Below, in pieces: positions 54,041 through 63,872 of a stretch of 64,000 nucleotides of DNA (positions within the stretch are counted from its first letter, which is position 1; each line of letters opens with the position of its first letter). The position numbers and the translations under genes are program-made. Source of the stretch: Tetradesmus obliquus (Eukaryota > Chlorophyta > Chlorophyceae > Sphaeropleales > Scenedesmaceae); contig CP126192.1 of NCBI GenBank assembly GCA_030272155.1, positions 2,514,501-2,578,500 of the forward strand. The letters run 5' to 3'. Under the pieces are notes generated by a model. The model ran no database searches. It saw nothing but the letters and a program-made list of their open reading frames with translations, and was not told the DNA's origin.

Positions 54041-55507
54041 GCAGCGGAACAACACCAGCCCGCTGCGCTGAGGCAAGACAGGCCTGCAGCACACCTGCTG
54101 CAGCAGCTGGCGGCAAGCTGCTGGTGTATTCAGCTGCAGCTGGTTGCTAGGGGTCTGTGAGCAGGGATGCAGAAGGAGGCTGTGTTTGTGTTTGTATATG
54201 CCAGGGACGTCAGCAGCGTGTGTGTTCCCTTGCTGGGCATTTATGTCTGTTGTGCCTGAATTGTGACCTGTTGCCTTGACGGTGCTGAGTGCTGAGCTAA
54301 GGGACTGCAGTACGGCTGTGTTCTGGCAAAATGAGTGTTGCAAGCGAGCGCTTGGACTCAAGTTTCACACACCAGCCAGAACAGGGGTTGCTTGGATTAG
54401 ACACAAGGGTTGTTGGGGGTTCGGCAGGCACCTGTTGCTGGTGGTGTTGATGTGCATCAAGTGTTAACTCAACACTCCATGTTGAACATGGAGTTCATGT
54501 GCATCAAATGTGAAGGGCGTATGAGGTGTATCGCTCCACAGGCTGCAGCTGCACCCAGATGGCCGGAGCATGCCTTGCATGCTGGTTTGCTTGTTGGAGA
54601 GGTGCAGTCGCACAGTGGGCAGCGTTCCGCCTGTGTCGGTGCATGGTCATGAGTGTGACAATCCATACCTGCATGAACTGTCAGCGTCACAACGATTCGT
54701 CATCAACCTATATGGCCTTGCTGCTTTGTGGTGTACATAGATTGCGCAGTGTGGGTGGCGCACAACAAATGCGAAAGATGCATTGTGCTGTTGAGATCAT
54801 GTGAAGAGTGAGTCATGTGCAACTGGGTGCTGAGCCCACTGCTTTCTATCAATCAAGAAGTTGCAACTACTGCTGTGGTGCATGCTGTGCTTGTACTTGT
54901 GACACTCGCCAGCGAGTCAGAGAATGTTTGCGGATGGCTTGCCACTCAGTTATCTGTAACACAATTCAGACTCAAGACAAATGTGTGAGATAACATAGTT
55001 TTACAGTGAACGCCATTCTCTATTTGTGCGTTGTAATCAGTTCATCCGCGAACGCAATTGCTGCTGGCAGCGCCACCACAAAGCTGATGTTGCTACAGTA
55101 TCATTGCACAAGTGGCATGCGACCAAAACTCTACGTTGCAACCTGTAGAACATAAATAATGAAGTCACAATAGCCAACTAAAATTTGTGACAAGTGCTCA
55201 TCCCTCAAGTAAGCCTGCCAGTGCAACGTGAGATTCTCACCACTGCCTATGCCAGCAGCTGTGCTGAGTTGACACAACAAACATTTCAACCATTACAGGA
55301 CTGCAGTATGTGCACGCTCCACCACAGTGGCACCCATTTGGCACTCATTGGCACCCCCTGGCACCCATTTTGGCACCCATTGGCACCCCTCTGGCACCCA
55401 TTTTGGCACCCATTGGCACCCAGCTGGCACCCATTACACACACTCTCTATTGCATGTCTGCAGGTGTGTTTTCAACAGCTACTAAAAAAGCAACTACTAG
55501 AAACAGC
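54041..55507. other. Gene-free stretch; probable left border zone of the mobile element
   Basis: 3' flank of the TIC21-like gene, turning into more A/T-rich DNA at about 54.9-55.2 kb, then the iterated GGCACCCA repeats. The left end of the recombinase/primase element must lie somewhere here or just inside; I could not find a terminal repeat or a copy of the tRNA 3' end marking it. Confidence 0.5.
55327..55436. repeat. Ten iterated TGGCACCCA motifs
   Basis: About ten copies of TGGCACCCA (some with one change), spaced 10-12 bp, i.e. roughly one helical turn, ending about 70 bp before the ATG of the PHD-finger frame. Regular helical phasing is typical of arrays bound by a DNA-binding protein, such as iterons or promoter operators. 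Function is inferred only. Confidence 0.85.
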
Positions 55508-56131
55508 ATGACCAGCAATTATGACGATGACGACCCGTTCTGCCAGATATGCAAGCAAACCACTGCACAGGACATGCTGCTGTGCAGCACATGCAACTCT
55601 GGGAATCACACACACTGCGTGGGGCTCACATGCATCCCCGAGGATGAGTTCTATTGCTCTGAGTGCTGCAGGCAGCTGGCAGAGCTGCAAGTGGGCAGCA
55701 CAGTCATCACAGAGTCCCCCCAGCCCCTGTATGTGGATCCCAGTGTGCCGCACCTAAGCCAGGGCTTATTTAACAACATAATAACCAACTTGGGGCCTGT
55801 CCAGCTGGCAGACTTTGCGGCATATCGTGAAATCACTACTCTGTGCAACAAAGCCCCAATCAAAGACAGCATACGCATGTACAGCGCCAATTACCCGCAC
55901 AGGCAGCTGCTACGGCTGCACTGGGAGGTTACAAAGCCAGTTGCGCTGCTCTACCAACAGCCAGGAGCAGAGGCCTGCAGCTACCGCCTGGTCACAGCCA
56001 GGTACCGCCAGTTTGGGACTCCAGCAGCTGTTCAGAACTTGGCAACAGAGGCTTGGGCAGCTGGGCCTTCTGCTGCAAAGGTGGCCATGCAGGATCTGGT
56101 GGCTAGCAAGCCTGCAACTGCAGCAGCACGG

Positions 56132-56178
<47 letters not shown>

Positions 56179-57136
56179 TGTTAGCATGGCTAGCAGTGAT
56201 TCAGGAAGGGCCAATGGGGGTCAGCATGTAGCAAGCGGTGACCAGCAGCAGCAACAGCAACAGCCAGCAGATGACAATGGCACTGGCTCAGCAGCAGGCT
56301 TACCCCATGGTGGCCCCAGATTGCGCCCAAGACGCCAGGCAGCACAGCAGGAAGACTCTTCTGACAGCGATGTGCCTCCAGAGCCTCCCACGGCGCAACT
56401 ACAGCAGCAGCAGCAGCAGCCACCGTCAGACTCGGGTGTGCTGCAAGCTTTGTAGCAGCCACAACAGCAGGCTGTCACTTTGCTGGAGCAGCTACTGCAG
56501 CTGCAGGGGGGTCAGGTGCAGTCTGTAGGTGGCCTGGCACAGCTGGCCCACGTTGGCGGAGGCCTTGGGCAACTGTTGCCACCCCCGCAGTTGATACAGC
56601 CTGCGCAGCTGCAACTGCTGCTGCAGTTACTGCAACCAGCTGCGCCCCAGCCCTCACTGCTGCAGTTGCTGCAACCAGCAGCGGCCCAGTCCTCACTGCT
56701 GCAGTTACTGCAACCTGCAGCGCCACAGGCCTCTCTGCTGCAGCTGCTGCAACCAGCAGCGCCCCAGCCCTCACTGCTGCAGCTGCTGCAGGGGCAGGGA
56801 GCTATGCCAGCAGCTGCTGGTAATGTGCAGGCTGCGCTGACACCAGCTGCTCCACAGCCCCGCCAAGCAGGACGTGGGGCAGCTCAGCACAGCAGCAACA
56901 AGAAGTCAAGGGGCCAGCCAGCTGCTAGTACTGGCCTCAGGTTGCAAGAGGAGCTGGAGGAGGCTGCCAGGCTGGGTGGGGAGCTGACAAGCAGTGACAC
57001 CAGCGATGATGACTGGATGTTGCCGGGGCAGCAACAGCAAACGCCAGCGGCTGCAGCAGCAGTTGTGGCAGCGGCAGCAGAGCCAGCAGCAGAGCCAGCG
57101 GGGGTCAGCAGTGGGCCTACCAGGGTTGTGTACAAG
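55508..57136 (+). CDS. PHD-finger, Ser/Gln-rich protein frame interrupted by one TAG
   Basis: From ATG 55508 the frame runs 543 codons to a GTGTGC donor at 57137, open except for TAG at 56453-56455. Residues about 11-56 form a PHD zinc finger: CQIC...CSTCNSGNHTHCVG...FYCSEC (Cys4-His-Cys3), a fold that usually reads histone H3 tails. A globular segment follows (SVPHLSQGLFNNIITNLGPV, YPHRQLLRLHWEVTKP), then polySer, polyGln, the TAG, LLQLLQPA repeats and an acidic SSDTSDDDW patch. It is probably the N-terminal part of the downstream recombinase gene or its partner, perhaps steering integration to certain chromatin (inference). The TAG is followed by CAG CCA, the tobamovirus-type leaky context; a C-to-T nonsense mutation of a Gln codon is the plain alternative. 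Confidence 0.7.
56130..56175 (+). repeat. (AGC)n polyserine tract
   Basis: AGC repeat read as polySer in the PHD-finger frame; the same triplet repeat is read as Gln a little downstream. Confidence 0.9.
56618..56794 (+). repeat. 39-bp coding tandem repeat (LLQLLQPAAPQPS), 4.5 copies
   Basis: Four full copies and a partial one of a 13-residue unit whose start is LLQLL, an amphipathic LxxLL-like helix. It lies downstream of the in-frame TAG yet keeps the frame intact, which argues that this part was translated at least until recently. Confidence 0.9.
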
Positions 57137-57489
57137 GTGTGCAAGTAAACTGCAATGGCCGCCAGTACATGGTGTACTGTTATAATGCTTTTGTACTAAG
57201 TGAATGAACACATGCAGCAGGCCAGCAGCATTGTCATGCAGCCATTGTGAAGTGCATGCATGTCTCCTACTCCAGGTGAACTGGTACAGTGCCTAACCTG
57301 CAGTAACTCACTGCCATACCTGTGATGATTGCAATCAGGTGCTGACCAGCCCACGGGTGAGAGGTAGCAGGATGCGGCTCAACCCCACACTGGCCAAACA
57401 GCAGGCTCGGGCTTGCTGTGCGGTTGGGAGTGCCACTCTGGAGGCATCTGATGGCAGCAGGCAGCAGCAGCAACAGCAGCAGCAACAGC

Positions 57490-59731
57490 AGGGTCAGGCT
57501 GGCTCCTCGTCAGCTCAAGGCCAAGCTGGAGGCATTCAAGGAGATGGGCGATGCCAACAGGGAGTTTATGGAGAAGCCGGAGAACAAGAACCTCCACACA
57601 CACCTGCAGTACATGCTGCAGCTGCTGAGCCCACACGACGACCGGCTGCTGATTGGGTCAGACATAGTAACTGATAGGTAGGGGCTGGGCACTGAGAATC
57701 ACACACACAGCAGTTGCCATGGCATGTGCACACCCTCACACCACATACCTGTTGGTGCAGGATGCTGGCCATGGAGCGCCTGTCAGGTGGCAGAGTCACG
57801 AGTGTCAACAATGCCTTCTCCGCTGTGCGTTGCGCCTTCAGACTGCTCTTTGGCAGGTCCCTGCAGCCAGGTGAGATAGGCATCACACAGTATGTGACAT
57901 TCGGCAGCAGGGATATGCAGCGTTTTGACTCACACACAGCAGGTAACACGTAGCAGTGTGGCTGTGCTGCTGCAACCAATTACAACCCTTGCGTGTGTGC
58001 GCATGTGCTGCAGGCATCGAGGCAGAACTCACCACAGTCAAGGTCAGCAACGACAAGCTCCGCATTGACTTGCACAGCCCACTGCCTGATGCAGCTGTGT
58101 CTGAGTACAAGACAGAGCTCAGCCTCAGGGGGACCCTTGCGCGTGAGGCCCAGGGTACCATCAGAAGCCTGGAATCAGTGCAGCTGCAGCTGGTGTATGC
58201 CCTCACAGCACTGCTGGAGCAACTGGATGGCCTCAAACGCTGGTGAGTGGTCCCCTGCAAGCACACATAGCAGCAGAGCAGTGTGAGAGGGTGCACCAGG
58301 GAGCTGTGAAAGCCCCCAGTACTGAGGCAGCGCCCCCTGGTAACAATGCATGTAACACTTATGTACACTGGGCAAGCTTACACAAAGAGCTGCAGAGGAT
58401 GTAGTGTTTATAACAACACGTGCTCACACAGCCCTGCCTCTGCCTGCCACCGCCCACACAGGCCTGCCCCAGACTTCATCCCGCCCCGTAGCCTGGATCA
58501 GGTCAACAGGTGGTCACAGCTGGTGCTGGCGCTGCTGTTTCGGGTGCTGTGCAACGAGCGGCCGTCCGACATCACCCTCTACCACCTCGGCTGCTTCAAG
58601 CTGGCAGCACCAGACCACAGCAGCACCCACCTGGCCTCCCTGGCCCTGGCTGGCCTGCAACAGGATGCTGTGCACCACATTGACGACATGCTGGAGGCCT
58701 TCAGGGGGGCCGGGGCAGTGCTGCTGATCAGTGCGCCCAAGTGCAAGCAGTCGGAGCGCAAGAGGAGCAGGGGTGGGGGCCAGCAGCAGCACGTAGACTG
58801 GCTGTCAGTGCGCAAGCACCTGCTGCAGCCTCAGCTGGCCCTGTGGGACCCCGCCAGGCTGGTGGTGCTGTGCTTGATGGCCAGCTGGTTCAGCAGGGGG
58901 TCCATCGCTGCCAGGCTGCTGCTGAGCAGGAGGTTCAGGAGCGCCACGGCAGCGCCCAAGCGGCAGCAGCAGCCTGACTTTCAGGCCGAGGCGACAGTAG
59001 GCTGCTGGAAGGTGCCGACGGCCGGTGACCTGCACGGCACGGCTCCCACACTGTACCTGGTGCAGCAGAGCAGCAGCAGGGCAGGTGGCAGTGTTAGCAG
59101 CAGCAGTGATGATGAGGTTGATGCTGCAGCAGTGGCTGATGCACGGGCGGCAGCAGGCACATCGGTCAGCACAGGCACAGGCGTTCAGGAGGGGGCCAGT
59201 GCACCAGCAAGCGGTGGCACAGCAGCGGTCAGTGACAGCCAGGGGCTTGTGTTGGTGCACAGAAAGCCCAAGGGCAGCAGCGTAGTGGAGCTGAAGGCAC
59301 TGACAGGCTATGATGTCAGGCACAGCGTGCAAAAGTGTGCAGTGCAGAGTGGCGTGCGGCTGTTGCTGAGTGCACAGCTGGCCTCACACAGCCCTGACAA
59401 AGCCCTCAAGTACGCCAGCAACTGCAGCTATGACCTGCAGCATGGCACAGCAGCCCCCATCAAGCTGGTGAGCAACTGCGTGTCTACGGACGCCGCTGCT
59501 GCTGCCCACCCCCTGCGTGTTGTCACAGTTACCCCCTATATAGAGAGCAACATGTGTAAAAAGGGGGCAACTGGCCACCCAGCAGCTGCTGCAGTTGCTG
59601 GGAGCTGTGCAGGGTCAAAGCACATGCACTTGGGCATCTCAGCAATGTCATCTGGTCACAGTGCTGCTGATGCTTGTCACAGTTACCCCCTATATATAGA
59701 ACAGCATGTGCAAAAAAAGGGGCAACTGTGA
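57490..59731 (+). CDS. Tyrosine recombinase (Crypton-like integrase), possibly decaying
   Basis: Exon ends with consistent phase: ?-57677, 57761-57942, 58014-58242, 58462-59731 (TGA). The catalytic half is in the last exon. Box I: LALLFRVLCNERPSDITLYHLG, with the Arg near 58559. Box II: GYDVRHSVQKCAVQSGVRLL (59306 on), matching the HxLRHTFAxxxxxxG pattern with Tyr in place of the first His; then ASHSPDKALKYAS, matching LGHSS..TT..Y, with the nucleophile Tyr codon at 59411-59413. About 240 residues of Ser/Asp/Ala-rich insertion separate the boxes. The first exon is read in a different phase from the upstream Q-rich frame; the switch falls inside a CAG/CAA tract (57462-57493), so either slippage broke the gene or this is a separate gene with an unseen start. 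The end of the frame runs into the first inverted-repeat unit. Confidence 0.65.
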
Positions 59732-59884
59732 CACTAGCAGCTGCTGCAGTTGCTGGGAGCTGTGCAGGGCAAAACACAATTTGGTATCCCCAGCGTTGCC
59801 TAGTGGTTGCAGTGCAGCTGGTGGTTGTCACAGTTACCCCCTATATATAGAACAGCATGTGTAAAAAGGGGGGCAACTGTGACA
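59521..59884. promoter_or_regulatory. Three tandem inverted-repeat units, candidate replication origin
   Basis: Units start at 59521, 59675 and 59826 (spacing about 150 bp). Units 2 and 3 carry a 59-bp inverted repeat: TGTCACAGTTACCCCC, a TATATATAGA-containing A/T-rich centre, then GGGG(G)CAACTGTGACA; unit 1 keeps the inner arms only. Each is followed by AGCAGCTGCTGCAGTTGCTGG. Two inverted boxes around an A/T core is the layout of herpesvirus oriS, where an origin-binding helicase binds the boxes; such a helicase is encoded 300 bp away. They also sit between convergent genes, where a promoter is less expected but a terminator hairpin is possible. Confidence 0.5.
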
Positions 59885-60185
59885 CTAGCAGCTGCTGCAG
59901 TTGCTGGGAGCTGTACAGGGGGGCAACTGTGTTGCTGGTGTGGTTCTGACGCCTGGTGCCAACAGCCGATGTTTACTGTATACTAAAACAGCGTATGGGC
60001 TTCGCATAGTAAAATCAACAGTCAGCTGCAGCAGTTGCCGCCCCTATTTGCTAGCAAGGCTGTAGTTTGAAAAGGCACTCCAGCCAATCATACAACAGCA
60101 ATGCTTGATGGCCAGCACTGACCGCTTTGTAAACACAACTCAGGGTCCGCAGTAGGCAGCATTTGCCTGGAATGCCCACGTATCA
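59885..60185. other. Spacer between origin-like repeats and helicase stop
   Basis: Contains a half copy of the right inverted-repeat arm (GGGGGGCAACTGTG near 59.92 kb) and a TTTACTGTA/CGCATAGTAA stretch that recalls the MITE termini at 47.6 kb but has no partner end. No gene. Confidence 0.5.
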
Positions 60186-63100
60186 TCATATGCTGTAAGC
60201 GCCGCCTGCCGTCTGCGCTGCGTACCTACTGTAAGGCCCGCTCAGCTGCAACTGCTCCAGGTAGTCTGCAACCTCGCCGCAGGCCCACATGCTGCGGTGC
60301 AGCCGCCCGTACTTGAGCTTGAGCAGCTGTGCCATACCTGACGTGCTGGCCTTCTCAAAGCCCAGCGTGTACATTCTGTGGCGCGCTGCGCTACCTTCCT
60401 GCCTTGCCTGCTTGCTGCTGGTCACCAGCGTGATGCCTGCGCCCGCCTTGAACAGGGCCGCCAGTCGCTTGGTGATGCTGCCCGCTGTCTTGAACTCGCC
60501 GCTGGCGCCGCTGTCGATGCCAAACACGCGCGCTGTGCTTCGGCTGCGCTCTGCTGTGTTGAAGGCCTGGCAGGTCCTGAGGGCGTCCAGCTTTTCAGCT
60601 GTGAGGGTGATGATGGACGGTGTGTTTGTGTCTAGCACGTTGGTGACCCCCAGGGCCTGCAGCAGCTCTGCGATCACCTTGGCATGTGCTTGCACCGGCA
60701 GTGCCATCTCTCCCCCGTCATCTGCCAATGACAGTGCCGTTGTGTCCATTGTCCTGCCGCAGGTCAGCGCTGCCTGCAGCACCCTCAGGGGGGCTGCACT
60801 GCTGTCTGCAGCGCTGTGGTGCTCAAAAAAGGCTGCATCAAGTGCGTGGTTGCTGATGCCCCAGGCCCTGCAGTAGAAGTAGCGCTCCAGTGCCTCCTTG
60901 TCTTCCCTTCTGAGCTGGTTGCAGAACTGCAGCGCTGTGAGCGCATCTGCCTCGCTGTCATCGCTGCTGTCAATCACGCGTGCGCCCAGCAAGACAGTCT
61001 GCTTGTTGTGATGCGGCAGGGCCTCCTCATCGCCTGCTCGCTTCTTCTCATGCCAGGTTCCCCTGCTCCACTTGTGGCCGGCGTGCTCGATCAGCTTGAT
61101 TGTCTCAGGCAGGAAGCGAGCCCTGCCGTTGATGATGCGTGCGTAGTTGTGGCTGGCCACCACCATGGCTGGGTGGGTGGCGCTGGGCAGGTTTGCCACC
61201 TCACCAGTCTCCAGGGTCTCCTCATCGCACGGCAGCTCCGCATGGAACCCCTCAGTCCAGGTGAGGTTCTCCTGCCAGCGGATGTGGTTGACTGCATCTG
61301 CAGGCGTCAACTCCTCAGCTGCCCCCTGCCAGCTGAGCCCCTTGCACATGCAGTGCACGGTGCTGTTCTCCAGCTGCCTGATCCTGCCAGACATCTGCAT
61401 CAGCCCCAGCGGTGTGGTGCTGTTGCACAGGTGCAAGAACAAGGAGTGGAAGTGCTGCTGGTCAAAGTTGACTCCTGCTTCAATGCATGGGGACCACATA
61501 ACCAGCCGCTTGATGATCCAGTCGCTGTTGACAAACTGCACCCTCTTCTTCAGTGCGTCATCTGCTGCTGAGTCGTACAGCAACACCTCATCCTCCTTGA
61601 GCAGTGCCAGCTCTGTCACCAGGTGCTGCTTCAGGCTGTGCAGCATGTTGGAGCTCATGCTGGCCATTGCCACGTTCTCCCCTGCTGCCAGTGCTTGCAC
61701 CAGTTTTTCCACCCACTCTTGCTGATCGTTGGTGAACACCATCGTGCGTGGCTGGGGCCTCCAGGTGTTGCGCACCACGCGCGCGTGCAGCTGCAGGCTC
61801 TTGAAGAAGGCCCGTGTCTCTGCCCCGAAAAAGGCGTCCATTGCCAGCACCCGCTTGCTTGCCTTGATGATGCTGCAGAATGTCCGGAAGGTGGTTGCCT
61901 GGCGCTCCCTGTGGGTCTTGGCGGTTGTGTGGTGCAGGGTGCTCTCAACCTCATCCAGCACCACCAGATCGTATTGAGGGATGATCTGCCCCTGCGCACA
62001 CCATGGCGATGCTGACCAGCTGCACAATGGCCCTGTCTGCTGCTGACAGGTCAGCCTTGTGCTCCTTTGCATCCAGGTAGTTCTCAAAGCCCAGCGCCTG
62101 CAGGTCGCTGAGCATGTTCAAGCTCAGCGACTGCCTGTAGGTTATGATCAGCACCCGCTTCGCCCGGTGCACCTCCTCCAGCTCCTGCACCAGGTTCGAC
62201 AGCAGGCATGTCTTGCCAGTGCCCATGCTGCTCTGTATGCCCAACACATGCGTGTGCATGCCCATGAGCTTGTCCAGCTCTGTGTTGAGCTATGTGGTGT
62301 CGGCGTCTGTACATGTGGTGCTCATGTACCTGTGCAGCGTCTGCTGGCCTCCTACCAATGTTGTTAGATTATCTTGCCGCCTCCTTGCCAGGTACCTGCA
62401 GTGCACCTCGACGTCTCCTGCTGCGCTGAAGTCGTCTGTGAGGCTGCCGATCCTGAAGGTGCGCCAGCATCCAAAAGCGTGCACGAAGGCCTGGCTGCCG
62501 GCAAACCAGGCCGCGTAGTTGTTGCTCTTGTGCGCCTTGCCGCACCAGCACTCCTCTGTTCTGTCTGTGTGGTTGAACCTCGGTGCGTTGTCCCTGTTCC
62601 AGACGTTTTTGCCGCTGAGCCTCTGCATGTAGGCTGTAGGGTGCTGCTGCAGGATGAGCTCCAGCATGCGCTCCTCGCCCTCAGAGTAGCTCACACCTGA
62701 CGGCGGTGCCGCGCTGCCCTTCCTCGCTGCTGTTGTTCGTATGCTGGCCTGCTGGCGCTCCACCGTGGGCAGCTGCAGCACGTGCGGCGTGCGGCCGCCA
62801 AAGTAGCTGACCATGGCATCTGCCAGGCTGTGGTTGGTTGCAATGCAGGCGGTGTTGGGGGTCCATGTGTCCATGCGCACTCCAGGCTTGGCCGGCTTGG
62901 TGGCACCTGGCAGGCGCATCTCCCTGTCCCGTGTGTAGATTGAGCCGTCTATCAGAGCGTGCTGCTCCACCTCAGGCATGACCTGCACCAGCCTGTTGTA
63001 AAAGTGCCTGGCGCCGTCGTGTGTTGCATGTGTTGGGTTATGCTGCGGCAAGCACAGTATCCTGCCGTCTGGCATGATGTGGTGCACGACCAGGTGTGCG

Positions 63101-63570
63101 CTGAACTTGACTGGGTAGTCTGTGAAGACCCACACAAATGACTCGGCTGGCAGCTGGACGCCAAACTCGGTGAGAAAGATGTCTGTGAGGGCATCCTGCA
63201 CCCTGCTGGTGAAGTCCTGCTTGCTGGCAAAGCATGCCGGCAGTCCGTCCGTGCCATCAAAGTCCATGCAAAGCTTGCACGGCTTGTCTTTGAGGATGAT
63301 CTCATAGGTGTGGTTCTTGTCAGCTGGCAGCCCAGGAAGAATCTCTAACAGGCGGACGGGGTCGTCAATCGCCACAAAGTGCCGCGTGTACGTGTACTCA
63401 ACAATGTCTGCTGGTGCCGGCTGGCGGCGCGGCATTTGCACCTGCAGCTGCATGGTTGCTCCAACCTCTGCGGCGTAGGCCTGCATGGGTGCTTTGGAGG
63501 CCCTGAAGCCAGCAAAGCCACACCAGTCCATCCCACGGTGCTGGCCAGGTGTATTCTGTGCTGCTGCCAT
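60186..63570 (-). pseudogene. AEP primase plus SF2 origin-binding helicase, one in-frame TAG and one frameshift
   Basis: Reading from 63570: 426 codons with archaeo-eukaryotic primase motifs: KLCMDFDG (Asp103, Asp105), KFSAHLVV (Ser157, His159), ALIDGSIY with a downstream RLPGA (Asp208), and a zinc-knuckle-like CWCGKAH...FVHAFGC. TAG at 62290-62292 interrupts the frame, which continues into an SF2 helicase of the herpesvirus-origin-binding/mimivirus type: Walker A SSMGTGKT (about 62206-62229), then a -1/+1 shift near 61.99 kb, then VVLDEVES (about 61.95 kb) and motif VI LMQMSGRIRQL. About 400 further residues to the TGA at 60186 have no clear motif. Primase and helicase in one chain would let the element start its own replication. 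The lesions suggest inactivity, unless readthrough or assembly error explains them. Confidence 0.75.
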
Positions 63571-63626
63571 CGTGTCTTCCTATCCTAGCACACCAGCAAT
63601 TCTGTGGCCTTAAGCCGCACACGTGT

Positions 63627-63872
63627 TCAGCAGCTGGCAGCAGCGGACATGCTGTCAGGCGCAACAGCCGCTGCCGCTGCTGTTGCTGCCTTTCTGGCGG
63701 CATACCTTGCCTGCCAGAGCCTCTTGTAATGGTCACGCCTGCTGTCAATGTAAGCAGCTGCCCTCTGGCGTTCTTTTTCACGGAATTCAGGGTCAGTGTT
63801 GCACCTGTTTCTGTAGTAACGGCTGCCTGCCTCCTTGCGGCTTGGTGTTGATGCAGCGGTTTGTTGTTCCAT
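63627..63872 (-). CDS. Small basic protein, Arg/Lys/Tyr-rich
   Basis: Predicted 81 aa, single exon. The core is SRYYRNRCNTDPEFREKERQ followed by an RRDHYKRLWQARYAARKAA helix, strongly basic and amphipathic, with an Ala-rich tail. Short YYRNR...DPEFREKERQ-type proteins are common in large DNA viruses and related elements, with no defined function. It ends 56 bp upstream of the primase ATG on the same strand, so they may be co-transcribed. DNA binding is a guess from charge. Confidence 0.6.
   Translation of the reverse strand: MEQQTAASTPSRKEAGSRYYRNRCNTDPEFREKERQRAAAYIDSRRDHYKRLWQARYAARKAATAAAAAVAPDSMSAAASC

What the first reader, a model, noticed from the sequence alone, without database searches (positions are those of the whole stretch)
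55328..63872. A tyrosine-recombinase element carrying its own primase and herpes/mimi-type origin-binding helicase
Seen: YR boxes (RPSD, YDVRHS, HSPDKALKY), AEP motifs (MDFDG, FSAHL), SF2 motifs (GTGKT, DEVES, MQMSGRIRQL), a PHD finger and a small viral-type basic protein, all within 8.5 kb and next to a tRNA gene. Known: Cryptons carry YR without primase-helicases of this kind; virophages and Polinton-like viruses pair integrases with SF3-type primase-helicases; UL9-class helicases belong to herpes- and mimivirus-like replication. The combination in an algal chromosome looks new to me. Inference: an integrating, self-replicating element or a remnant of an unknown virus or plasmid lineage.
Basis: partly seen in the sequence, partly recalled or inferred. 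Interest (0 to 1): 0.9.

Follow-up and report, generated by a model that had tools for sequence, protein, structure and literature searches.

The report
Algal mobile element with virus-like replicase
Part of a green-alga chromosome is a decayed copy of a jumping DNA element that pairs a probable tyrosine-recombinase gene with a giant-virus-type primase-helicase gene, which matters because it suggests a self-replicating transposon of a little-known kind, although no activity has been shown.

Summary
The window lies in Tetradesmus obliquus. Window 60,186-63,570 (minus) encodes one broken gene: PrimPol-like primase fused to a UL9-type helicase, a giant-virus-type replicase. Window 54,950-59,467 (plus) starts a mobile element with a PHD finger and a probable tyrosine recombinase (YR). 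The YR call rests on motifs and one weak profile hit; the fold test was inconclusive. No tRNA was found.
New here: a sharp left terminus. A 24-bp end motif has 12 matches in 104.7 Mb (control 0). Nine insertions were inspected; their flanks differ. Five of them run out to the right at different lengths (0.39-5.0 kb).
The replicase sits between inverted arrays of a 151-bp repeat carrying a 57-bp palindrome, found only here and at C10. Compared with five other loci, the YR gene's last exon is inverted and displaced beyond the replicase.
In another strain, YR and replicase genes have consecutive locus tags once and tags five apart once. A diverged replicase locus (C7) has the same terminus. Both favour one element; nested insertion remains possible.
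Best reading: a Crypton-like YR element that acquired a giant-virus-type replicase. The window copy looks dead.

The parts
54950..54988 (+). Left terminus of the element (TTATCTGTAACACAATTCAG... motif)
   Evidence: 32 of 39 bases match the terminus shared by other copies; next best site in the 64-kb window 25 of 39; best scores of 30 shuffled queries 21-24
55320..55435 (+). GGCACCC-type simple repeat upstream of the PHD gene; GGCACCC runs also lie upstream of it at C12, C15b, C14, C6 and C9, not at C4a, C4b, C15a
55521..56455 (+). First coding exon of the PHD-YR gene; PHD finger at about 55541-55666
   Evidence: Pfam PHD 2.3e-5; 10 further genomic places with this exon
57451..58249 (+). Middle exons (57451-57681, 57759-57938, 58007-58249), with the putative N-terminal core-binding part of the YR; a frame change lies upstream near 57.4 kb
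   Evidence: exon-by-exon matches of P0051; weak match of relatives to the N-terminal part of a YR profile, at most 4.3 bits; frame change seen by comparing with P0050
58463..59467 (+). Putative YR catalytic exon: NERPSD 58553-58570, YDVRHS 59309-59326, HSPDKALKY 59387-59413; splice-donor-like GTGAGC at 59468
   Evidence: annotated as OEZ86_000305 (P0023)
59519..59920 (+). Left array, 2.6 copies of a 151-bp repeat; 57-bp palindromes at 59676-59732 and 59827-59883
   Evidence: Its inverted partner, 6.5 copies, lies outside the window at C2:2581097-2582076
60186..62265 (-). UL9-type SF2 helicase part of the PrimPol-helicase gene, in two frames (60186-62087 and 61951-62265)
   Evidence: fold matches of the relative P0016
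62290..63570 (-). PrimPol-like AEP part of the same gene, ending at an in-frame stop near 62290
63627..63872 (-). Small basic ORF (81 aa) upstream of the AEP, conserved at C7

Best explanation
A DNA-mediated mobile element of the green alga Tetradesmus obliquus with a fixed left terminus (window 54,950). Its first gene encodes a PHD-finger protein with a probable tyrosine-recombinase domain and, at C15, a C-terminal MYND-like finger. Its second gene encodes a PrimPol-like primase fused to a UL9-type origin-binding helicase. Arrays of a 151-bp repeat, most complete units with a 57-bp palindrome around an AT-rich core, flank the replicase segment in inverted orientation. Proposed working (inferred): the recombinase cuts and joins at the terminus; the helicase binds the palindromic arrays as an origin, as UL9 does at oriS; the primase starts copying; the zinc fingers target chromatin. 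Shown: precise left end, different insertion sites, recent copying with introns kept, dN/dS well under 1, element-specific palindromes, and a last YR exon that is inverted and displaced in the window copy compared with five other loci. Inferred: that recombination between the inverted arrays caused this. The window copy looks like a broken remnant.
For: Terminus: 12 matches in the genome, control 0. Host sequence differs right up to it in the five copies first compared; flank identity to C12 is 0.25-0.33 in 7 of 7 compared. Recent copying: a copy whose 387 matching bases are identical to the C12 copy 8.9 kb away; C10 pieces 98-99% identical to the C2 element. Linkage of the two genes: in another strain OEZ85_003902 (YR) and _003903 (replicase) are consecutive, and _003905 (YR) and _003910 (replicase) are five apart, on a contig of the same length; C7, whose helicase pieces are 76-85% identical, has the same terminus at 21 of 24 bases, 6.6 kb from its helicase end. 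Arrays: 12 matches, only at C2 and C10; palindrome core 22 matches, all in these two loci, control 0; a typed example folds with z -5.2. Function kept during divergence: dN/dS 0.30-0.34 for AEP, helicase and YR exon. Replicase type. YR: PF00589 matches P0028 at residues 301-349 against profile 122-166 of 172. Its E of 0.069 is for 24,736 models, so by my arithmetic about 3e-6 for this one model and 7e-5 after 26 rows.
Against: Most terminus-bearing places lack a recognisable primase-helicase: searches find that gene only at C2, C7 and C10, and C15b has no nucleotide match to C2, C7 or C10 in the 3.8 kb held after its MYND exon. No right terminus and no target-site duplication were found. YR fold unconfirmed: model pLDDT 59, no YR among the matches shown; profile-profile tests against XerC/D, FimB/E and one alga YR not significant; on a small YR profile the window exon's score was reached by 177 of 500 shuffles, and unrelated replicase proteins scored up to 2.7 bits against 4.8 for the best family member. 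Unrelated Pfam families score as well as or better than PF00589 on the same rows (Reovirus_L2_4th 0.0028, Menin 0.036). The first His of the usual HxxR box is Tyr in this family, and H to Y is one residue shorter than in XerD. C7 shares the window's convergent order (terminus plus, replicase minus), so which orientation is ancestral is open. Pairings in the other strain are read from locus-tag numbers, not from its DNA. That the arrays are an origin is analogy only.
Confidence: 0.57

Rival explanations
1. Two elements, one inside the other: a Crypton-like PHD-YR element whose last intron was invaded by a separate palindrome-flanked primase-helicase element; the pair was then duplicated.
For: The primase-helicase with its inverted arrays sits between the YR exon and its C-terminal exon. 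At C12, C15b, C14, C10:141k and C10:184k the two exons lie a few hundred bases apart, with no room for it. Where compared, proteins of the other strain's pairs are mostly 95-98% like the window's (P0003's AEP 80%), so they could trace to one event. A gene nested in an intron could also bear the next locus tag.
Against: C7, a diverged primase-helicase locus without a match to this YR gene, has the same 24-bp terminus. In T. obliquus database proteins P0026 and P0051 the YR and C-terminal parts form one gene model, and the tail of P0034 matches the same exon's DNA in a frame of its own.
Confidence: 0.3
2. Remnant of an endogenous polinton-like virus or giant virus that carried YR and primase-helicase.
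For: The best viral structural matches of the replicase are giant-virus proteins (Bodo saltans virus 5.9e-34). Cryptophyte polinton-like viruses use YR and sometimes a primase-SF2 replicase.
Against: No capsid or known packaging gene among 19 proteins scanned from C2, C7 and C10 (not every ORF was scanned); no relative confirmed in viral contigs with three queries; inferred introns and zinc fingers suit a eukaryotic transposon. The Capsid_NCLDV search found nothing but is uninformative, since its 14 controls were silent too.
Confidence: 0.1
3. Ordinary host genes (PrimPol-like repair and chromatin genes) in a repeat-rich region.
For: dN/dS of 0.30-0.34; PHD and MYND fingers are common host domains (recalled).
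Against: Multi-copy with a precise left end and differing flanks; broken and truncated copies.
Confidence: 0.03

Closest known systems
Cryptons (YR DNA transposons)
   Same: DNA element with introns, probable YR, no target-site duplication seen
   Different: Carries a primase-helicase, PHD and MYND-like fingers and palindromic arrays; the words helicase, primase and PHD do not occur in the main text of the Crypton survey PMC3212892 (term search)
AEP plus SF2 (UL9-like) replicases of mimivirus R8, ASFV F1055L, Ostreid herpesvirus 1, some yaravirids (PMC11253617, passages)
   Same: Same two-domain architecture; long structural alignments to giant-virus proteins
   Different: In an algal nuclear mobile element without detected virion genes
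YR-bearing polinton-like viruses of cryptophytes, and the 20 with a primase-SF2 replicase (PMC12220804, sections 10-11)
   Same: The same two functional classes occur in one kind of integrating element
   Different: Those are viruses of 14-40 kb (abstract) with capsid genes; whether YR and the SF2 replicase occur in the same genomes is not stated in the sections read
Herpesvirus UL9 and oriS
   Same: Helicase family; palindromes with AT-rich centre in the element, like oriS (oriS recalled)
   Different: No shared recognition sequence tested; binding not shown

Membership tests
Crypton / YR element | Tyrosine recombinase domain with R..K..HxxR..H..Y | tested here: inconclusive
   Boxes in order; R to H spacing as in XerD by my count, H to Y one shorter; PF00589 only at E 0.069 for 1 of 26 rows; fold search without YR match from a pLDDT 59 model; H of HxxR replaced by Y
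Crypton / YR element | DNA-mediated, no reverse transcriptase, introns kept in copies | tested here: met
   Exons separated by introns at C12, C15, C10 copies; no RT among the Pfam hits of the proteins scanned
Crypton / YR element | Defined ends, no target-site duplication | tested here: inconclusive
   Left end defined; right end not found; no duplication seen by eye at four right-hand breakpoints
UL9 / giant-virus AEP-SF2 replicase | SF2 helicase of the Herpes_ori_bp family | tested here: met
UL9 / giant-virus AEP-SF2 replicase | N-terminal AEP primase fused to the helicase | tested here: met
   Fusion in P0002, P0014, P0016; PrimPol 5.6e-4; long viral matches. In the window copy the fusion is interrupted by a stop
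Polinton-like virus / virophage | Major capsid and packaging genes | tested here: inconclusive
   None among 19 proteins scanned with Pfam; capsid family search uninformative

The most novel reading that the evidence does not exclude
A eukaryotic transposon that copies itself by one-ended, replication-driven transposition: the recombinase joins only the left terminus, the element's own primase-helicase copies rightward and often stops early, leaving copies that start at the same point but end at different ones (0.39, 1.66, 2.5, 3.6 with an internal deletion, and 5.0 kb). The inverted palindromic arrays serve as origin and also let the replicase segment flip relative to the recombinase gene.
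Probability: 0.15. Interest if true: 0.88.

Novelty: new variant of a known kind. Interest (0 to 1): 0.62.

Why it matters
Eukaryotic YR DNA transposons are not generally known to bring a replication initiator of their own (recalled). One that pairs a recombinase with a giant-virus-type primase-helicase would link Cryptons, polinton-like viruses and giant-virus replication genes, and would offer a testable eukaryotic case of transposition coupled to element-encoded replication. The sharp left end, the element-specific palindromes and the left-anchored truncated copies are concrete handles for experiments.

Tried and rejected
Pfam and PHROGs on the window's YR and AEP ORFs gave no recombinase or primase match; NCBIfam gave only chance matches. 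Profile-profile comparison of the YR family with XerC, XerD, FimB, FimE and one alga YR was not significant (E 0.12 and 0.15; control 0.28), although it aligned the expected places. Hmmsearch with a five-sequence YR profile was mostly negative: for six proteins the observed score was reached by 3, 31, 113, 159, 177 and 226 of 500 shuffles, and replicase proteins used as negatives scored up to 2.7 bits. A PDB sequence search with the YR family profile returned histones H2B over residues 283-322, best E 1.8e-4, the others shown 0.15 or worse; I take this as chance, but it is a result against the YR reading.

The PDB fold comparison of the YR model showed mostly helix-turn-helix proteins and no recombinase among the rows shown; the model is weak, so absence says nothing.

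A second YR gene in the C7/C10 loci (motif GRPAECFRLRW) was dropped: not among the 12 best rows of 2067 ORFs on the YR profile, no Pfam hit. A direct-repeat att pair at C7 (2,075,707 and 2,097,359) was rejected: it is a 1.74-kb segmental duplicate that includes flank. A tRNA target was rejected. Literature: listings (at most 20 rows shown each, of up to 330 papers) showed no title or abstract start describing an element of this composition; that covers open-licence PMC text only. PMC10120064 was searched for terms only (Tetradesmus 0 times).

On re-checking I lowered the main confidence from 0.60 to 0.57 and raised the nested rival from 0.27 to 0.30, because one of the two locus-tag pairs is five apart, a nested gene could bear the next tag, and C7 shares the window's convergent order.
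Full report
Setting. The window is C2:2,514,501-2,578,500 of a 104.7-Mb, 17-contig genome. Window position p is C2 position 2,514,500 + p.

The replicase. ORFs at 62,290-63,570 and 60,186-62,265 on the minus strand are one gene: database relatives P0002, P0014 and P0016 are single proteins with an AEP half and a helicase half. The helicase is Herpes_ori_bp and its family profile finds herpes origin-binding protein structures at 2e-21; the AEP part finds human PrimPol at 5.6e-4. A model of P0016, weak overall (pLDDT 53.5), has HSV-1 origin-binding protein as best PDB match (3e-13) and giant-virus primase-helicases as best viral matches (Bodo saltans virus 5.9e-34). In the window the gene has an in-frame stop near 62,290 and a frame change near 62,000. 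Genome searches with the window's helicase and AEP find three loci: C2, C7 (helicase pieces 76-85%, AEP 77%) and a deleted piece at C10. Searches for more distant copies did not complete.

The recombinase gene. On the plus strand a multi-exon gene runs from a PHD exon (55,521) to an exon with YR-like boxes (58,463-59,467). PHD and part of the YR region occur in one metagenomic protein, P0049. The C-terminal exon at C15 ends in a MYND-like finger (E 0.00019, 21.8 bits, just under Pfam's cut-off of 22.7). The YR assignment is the weakest link. The boxes occur in order, and PF00589 matches one of 26 relatives at the right place, but unrelated families score similarly there, and the fold, profile and shuffle tests did not settle it.

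The border. Five copies of the PHD-YR gene (C12, C15 at 3.83 Mb, C14, C6, C9), about 89-99% alike per aligned block, begin within three bases of the same point, with differing sequence before it. The window has this terminus at 54,950 (32 of 39 bases). Genome-wide there are 12 matches with up to 3 mismatches, control 0. I inspected nine of these places with their flanks (C2, C4, C6, C7, C9, C12 twice, C14, C15); a tenth, the second C7 place, is a duplicate that includes flank; C3:7,817,846 and C7:688,206 were not fetched. At 60-160 bases inside, the window and C7 are only 21% and 30% identical to C12 without gaps, yet the terminal 24 bases are 92% and 88% identical, as expected of a functional end.

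Right-hand ends. Compared with C15b, the copies run out at 389, 1,659, 2,497, 3,589 (with an internal deletion) and 4,995 bases. The 387 matching bases of the shortest are identical to the C12 copy 8.9 kb away. I saw no target-site duplication at four breakpoints. Decay can explain this, but fixed left and varied right ends also suit one-ended copying.

The arrays. The replicase segment lies between inverted arrays of a 151-bp repeat, at 59,519-59,920 and at C2:2,581,097-2,582,076. The repeat has 12 matches in the genome, 4 at C2 and 8 at C10; C7 has two 76% fragments of about 70 bases. In the loci then held, 16 palindromes with arms like GTNACAGTT are counted, 8 at C2 and 8 at C10, none in C7, C12 or ten other fetched loci under the same pattern. 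The core pattern CTATATATAG-N-CATGTGT has 22 matches in the genome, 4 at C2 and 18 at C10, control 0. A typed 61-base example folds with z -5.2.

The displaced exon. At five of five other loci where both are found (C12, C15, C14 and two mirrored C10 copies that are not independent) the YR exon and the C-terminal exon lie on one strand, close together. In the window copy the C-terminal exon is at C2:2,580,447-2,581,061 on the other strand, beyond the replicase and next to the far array. Recombination between the inverted arrays would produce this; that step is inferred. Against it, C7 has the same convergent order of terminus and replicase as the window, so the ancestral orientation is open.

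One element or two. For one: in another strain OEZ85_003902 (YR) and _003903 (replicase) are consecutive, and _003905 (YR) and _003910 (replicase) five apart; C7 shares the terminus. For two: copies with both genes are mostly closely alike, most terminus places lack the replicase, C15b shows no nucleotide match in the 3.8 kb held after its MYND exon, and consecutive tags do not exclude a gene nested in an intron. I put one element at about two to one.

Selection. Pairwise dN/dS is 0.30 for AEP (423 codons), 0.34 and 0.31 for helicase (393 and 181 codons) between C2 and C7, and 0.34 for the YR exon (323 codons) between C2 and C12: these proteins were probably kept functional during divergence.

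Comparison with the known. AEP plus UL9-like SF2 fusions are known viral replicases (PMC11253617, passages). YR integrases and primase-SF2 replicases both occur among cryptophyte polinton-like viruses (PMC12220804, sections 10-11). The Crypton survey PMC3212892 does not contain the words helicase, primase or PHD in its main text (term search). So the ingredients are known; I found no description of their meeting in an algal element without detected virion genes, with zinc fingers and palindromic arrays, in the listings.

Noticed in passing
L056, L018, L019, L057 (C10:4039914-4068249): A large inverted repeat, blocks mostly 96.8-98.6% identical with one of 87%, surrounds the C10 helicase remnant and arrays; the arms carry an ATPase_2-domain ORF (1.6e-14) and genes shared with C7.
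   Followed up: partly
L054, L055 (C15:3071001-3091000): A recent tandem duplication of at least 8.5 kb with an 11.5-kb offset (99.75% identical) carries PHD-exon remnants.
   Followed up: no
L022, L023 (C10:139.8-143.3 kb and 183.6-187.1 kb): Two mirrored copies of a second YR subfamily (about 50% identical to the window's), matched exons without stops, about 44 kb apart.
   Followed up: no
L016, L068 (C7:2075498-2077237 and 2097150-2098889): 1.74-kb segmental duplicate (97.9%) that includes the element's left end and host flank.
   Followed up: yes
L001-L005 (C1, C3 three times, C17): Five other places match Phage_integrase over Pfam's cut-off; a separate YR family.
   Followed up: no
P0022 (protein record of unstated origin): A distant 1,106-aa protein (26% identical over 34% of the helicase query) has Herpes_ori_bp and aligns to the AEP half as well, so the architecture is wider than these algae or its source is a virus.
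   Followed up: no
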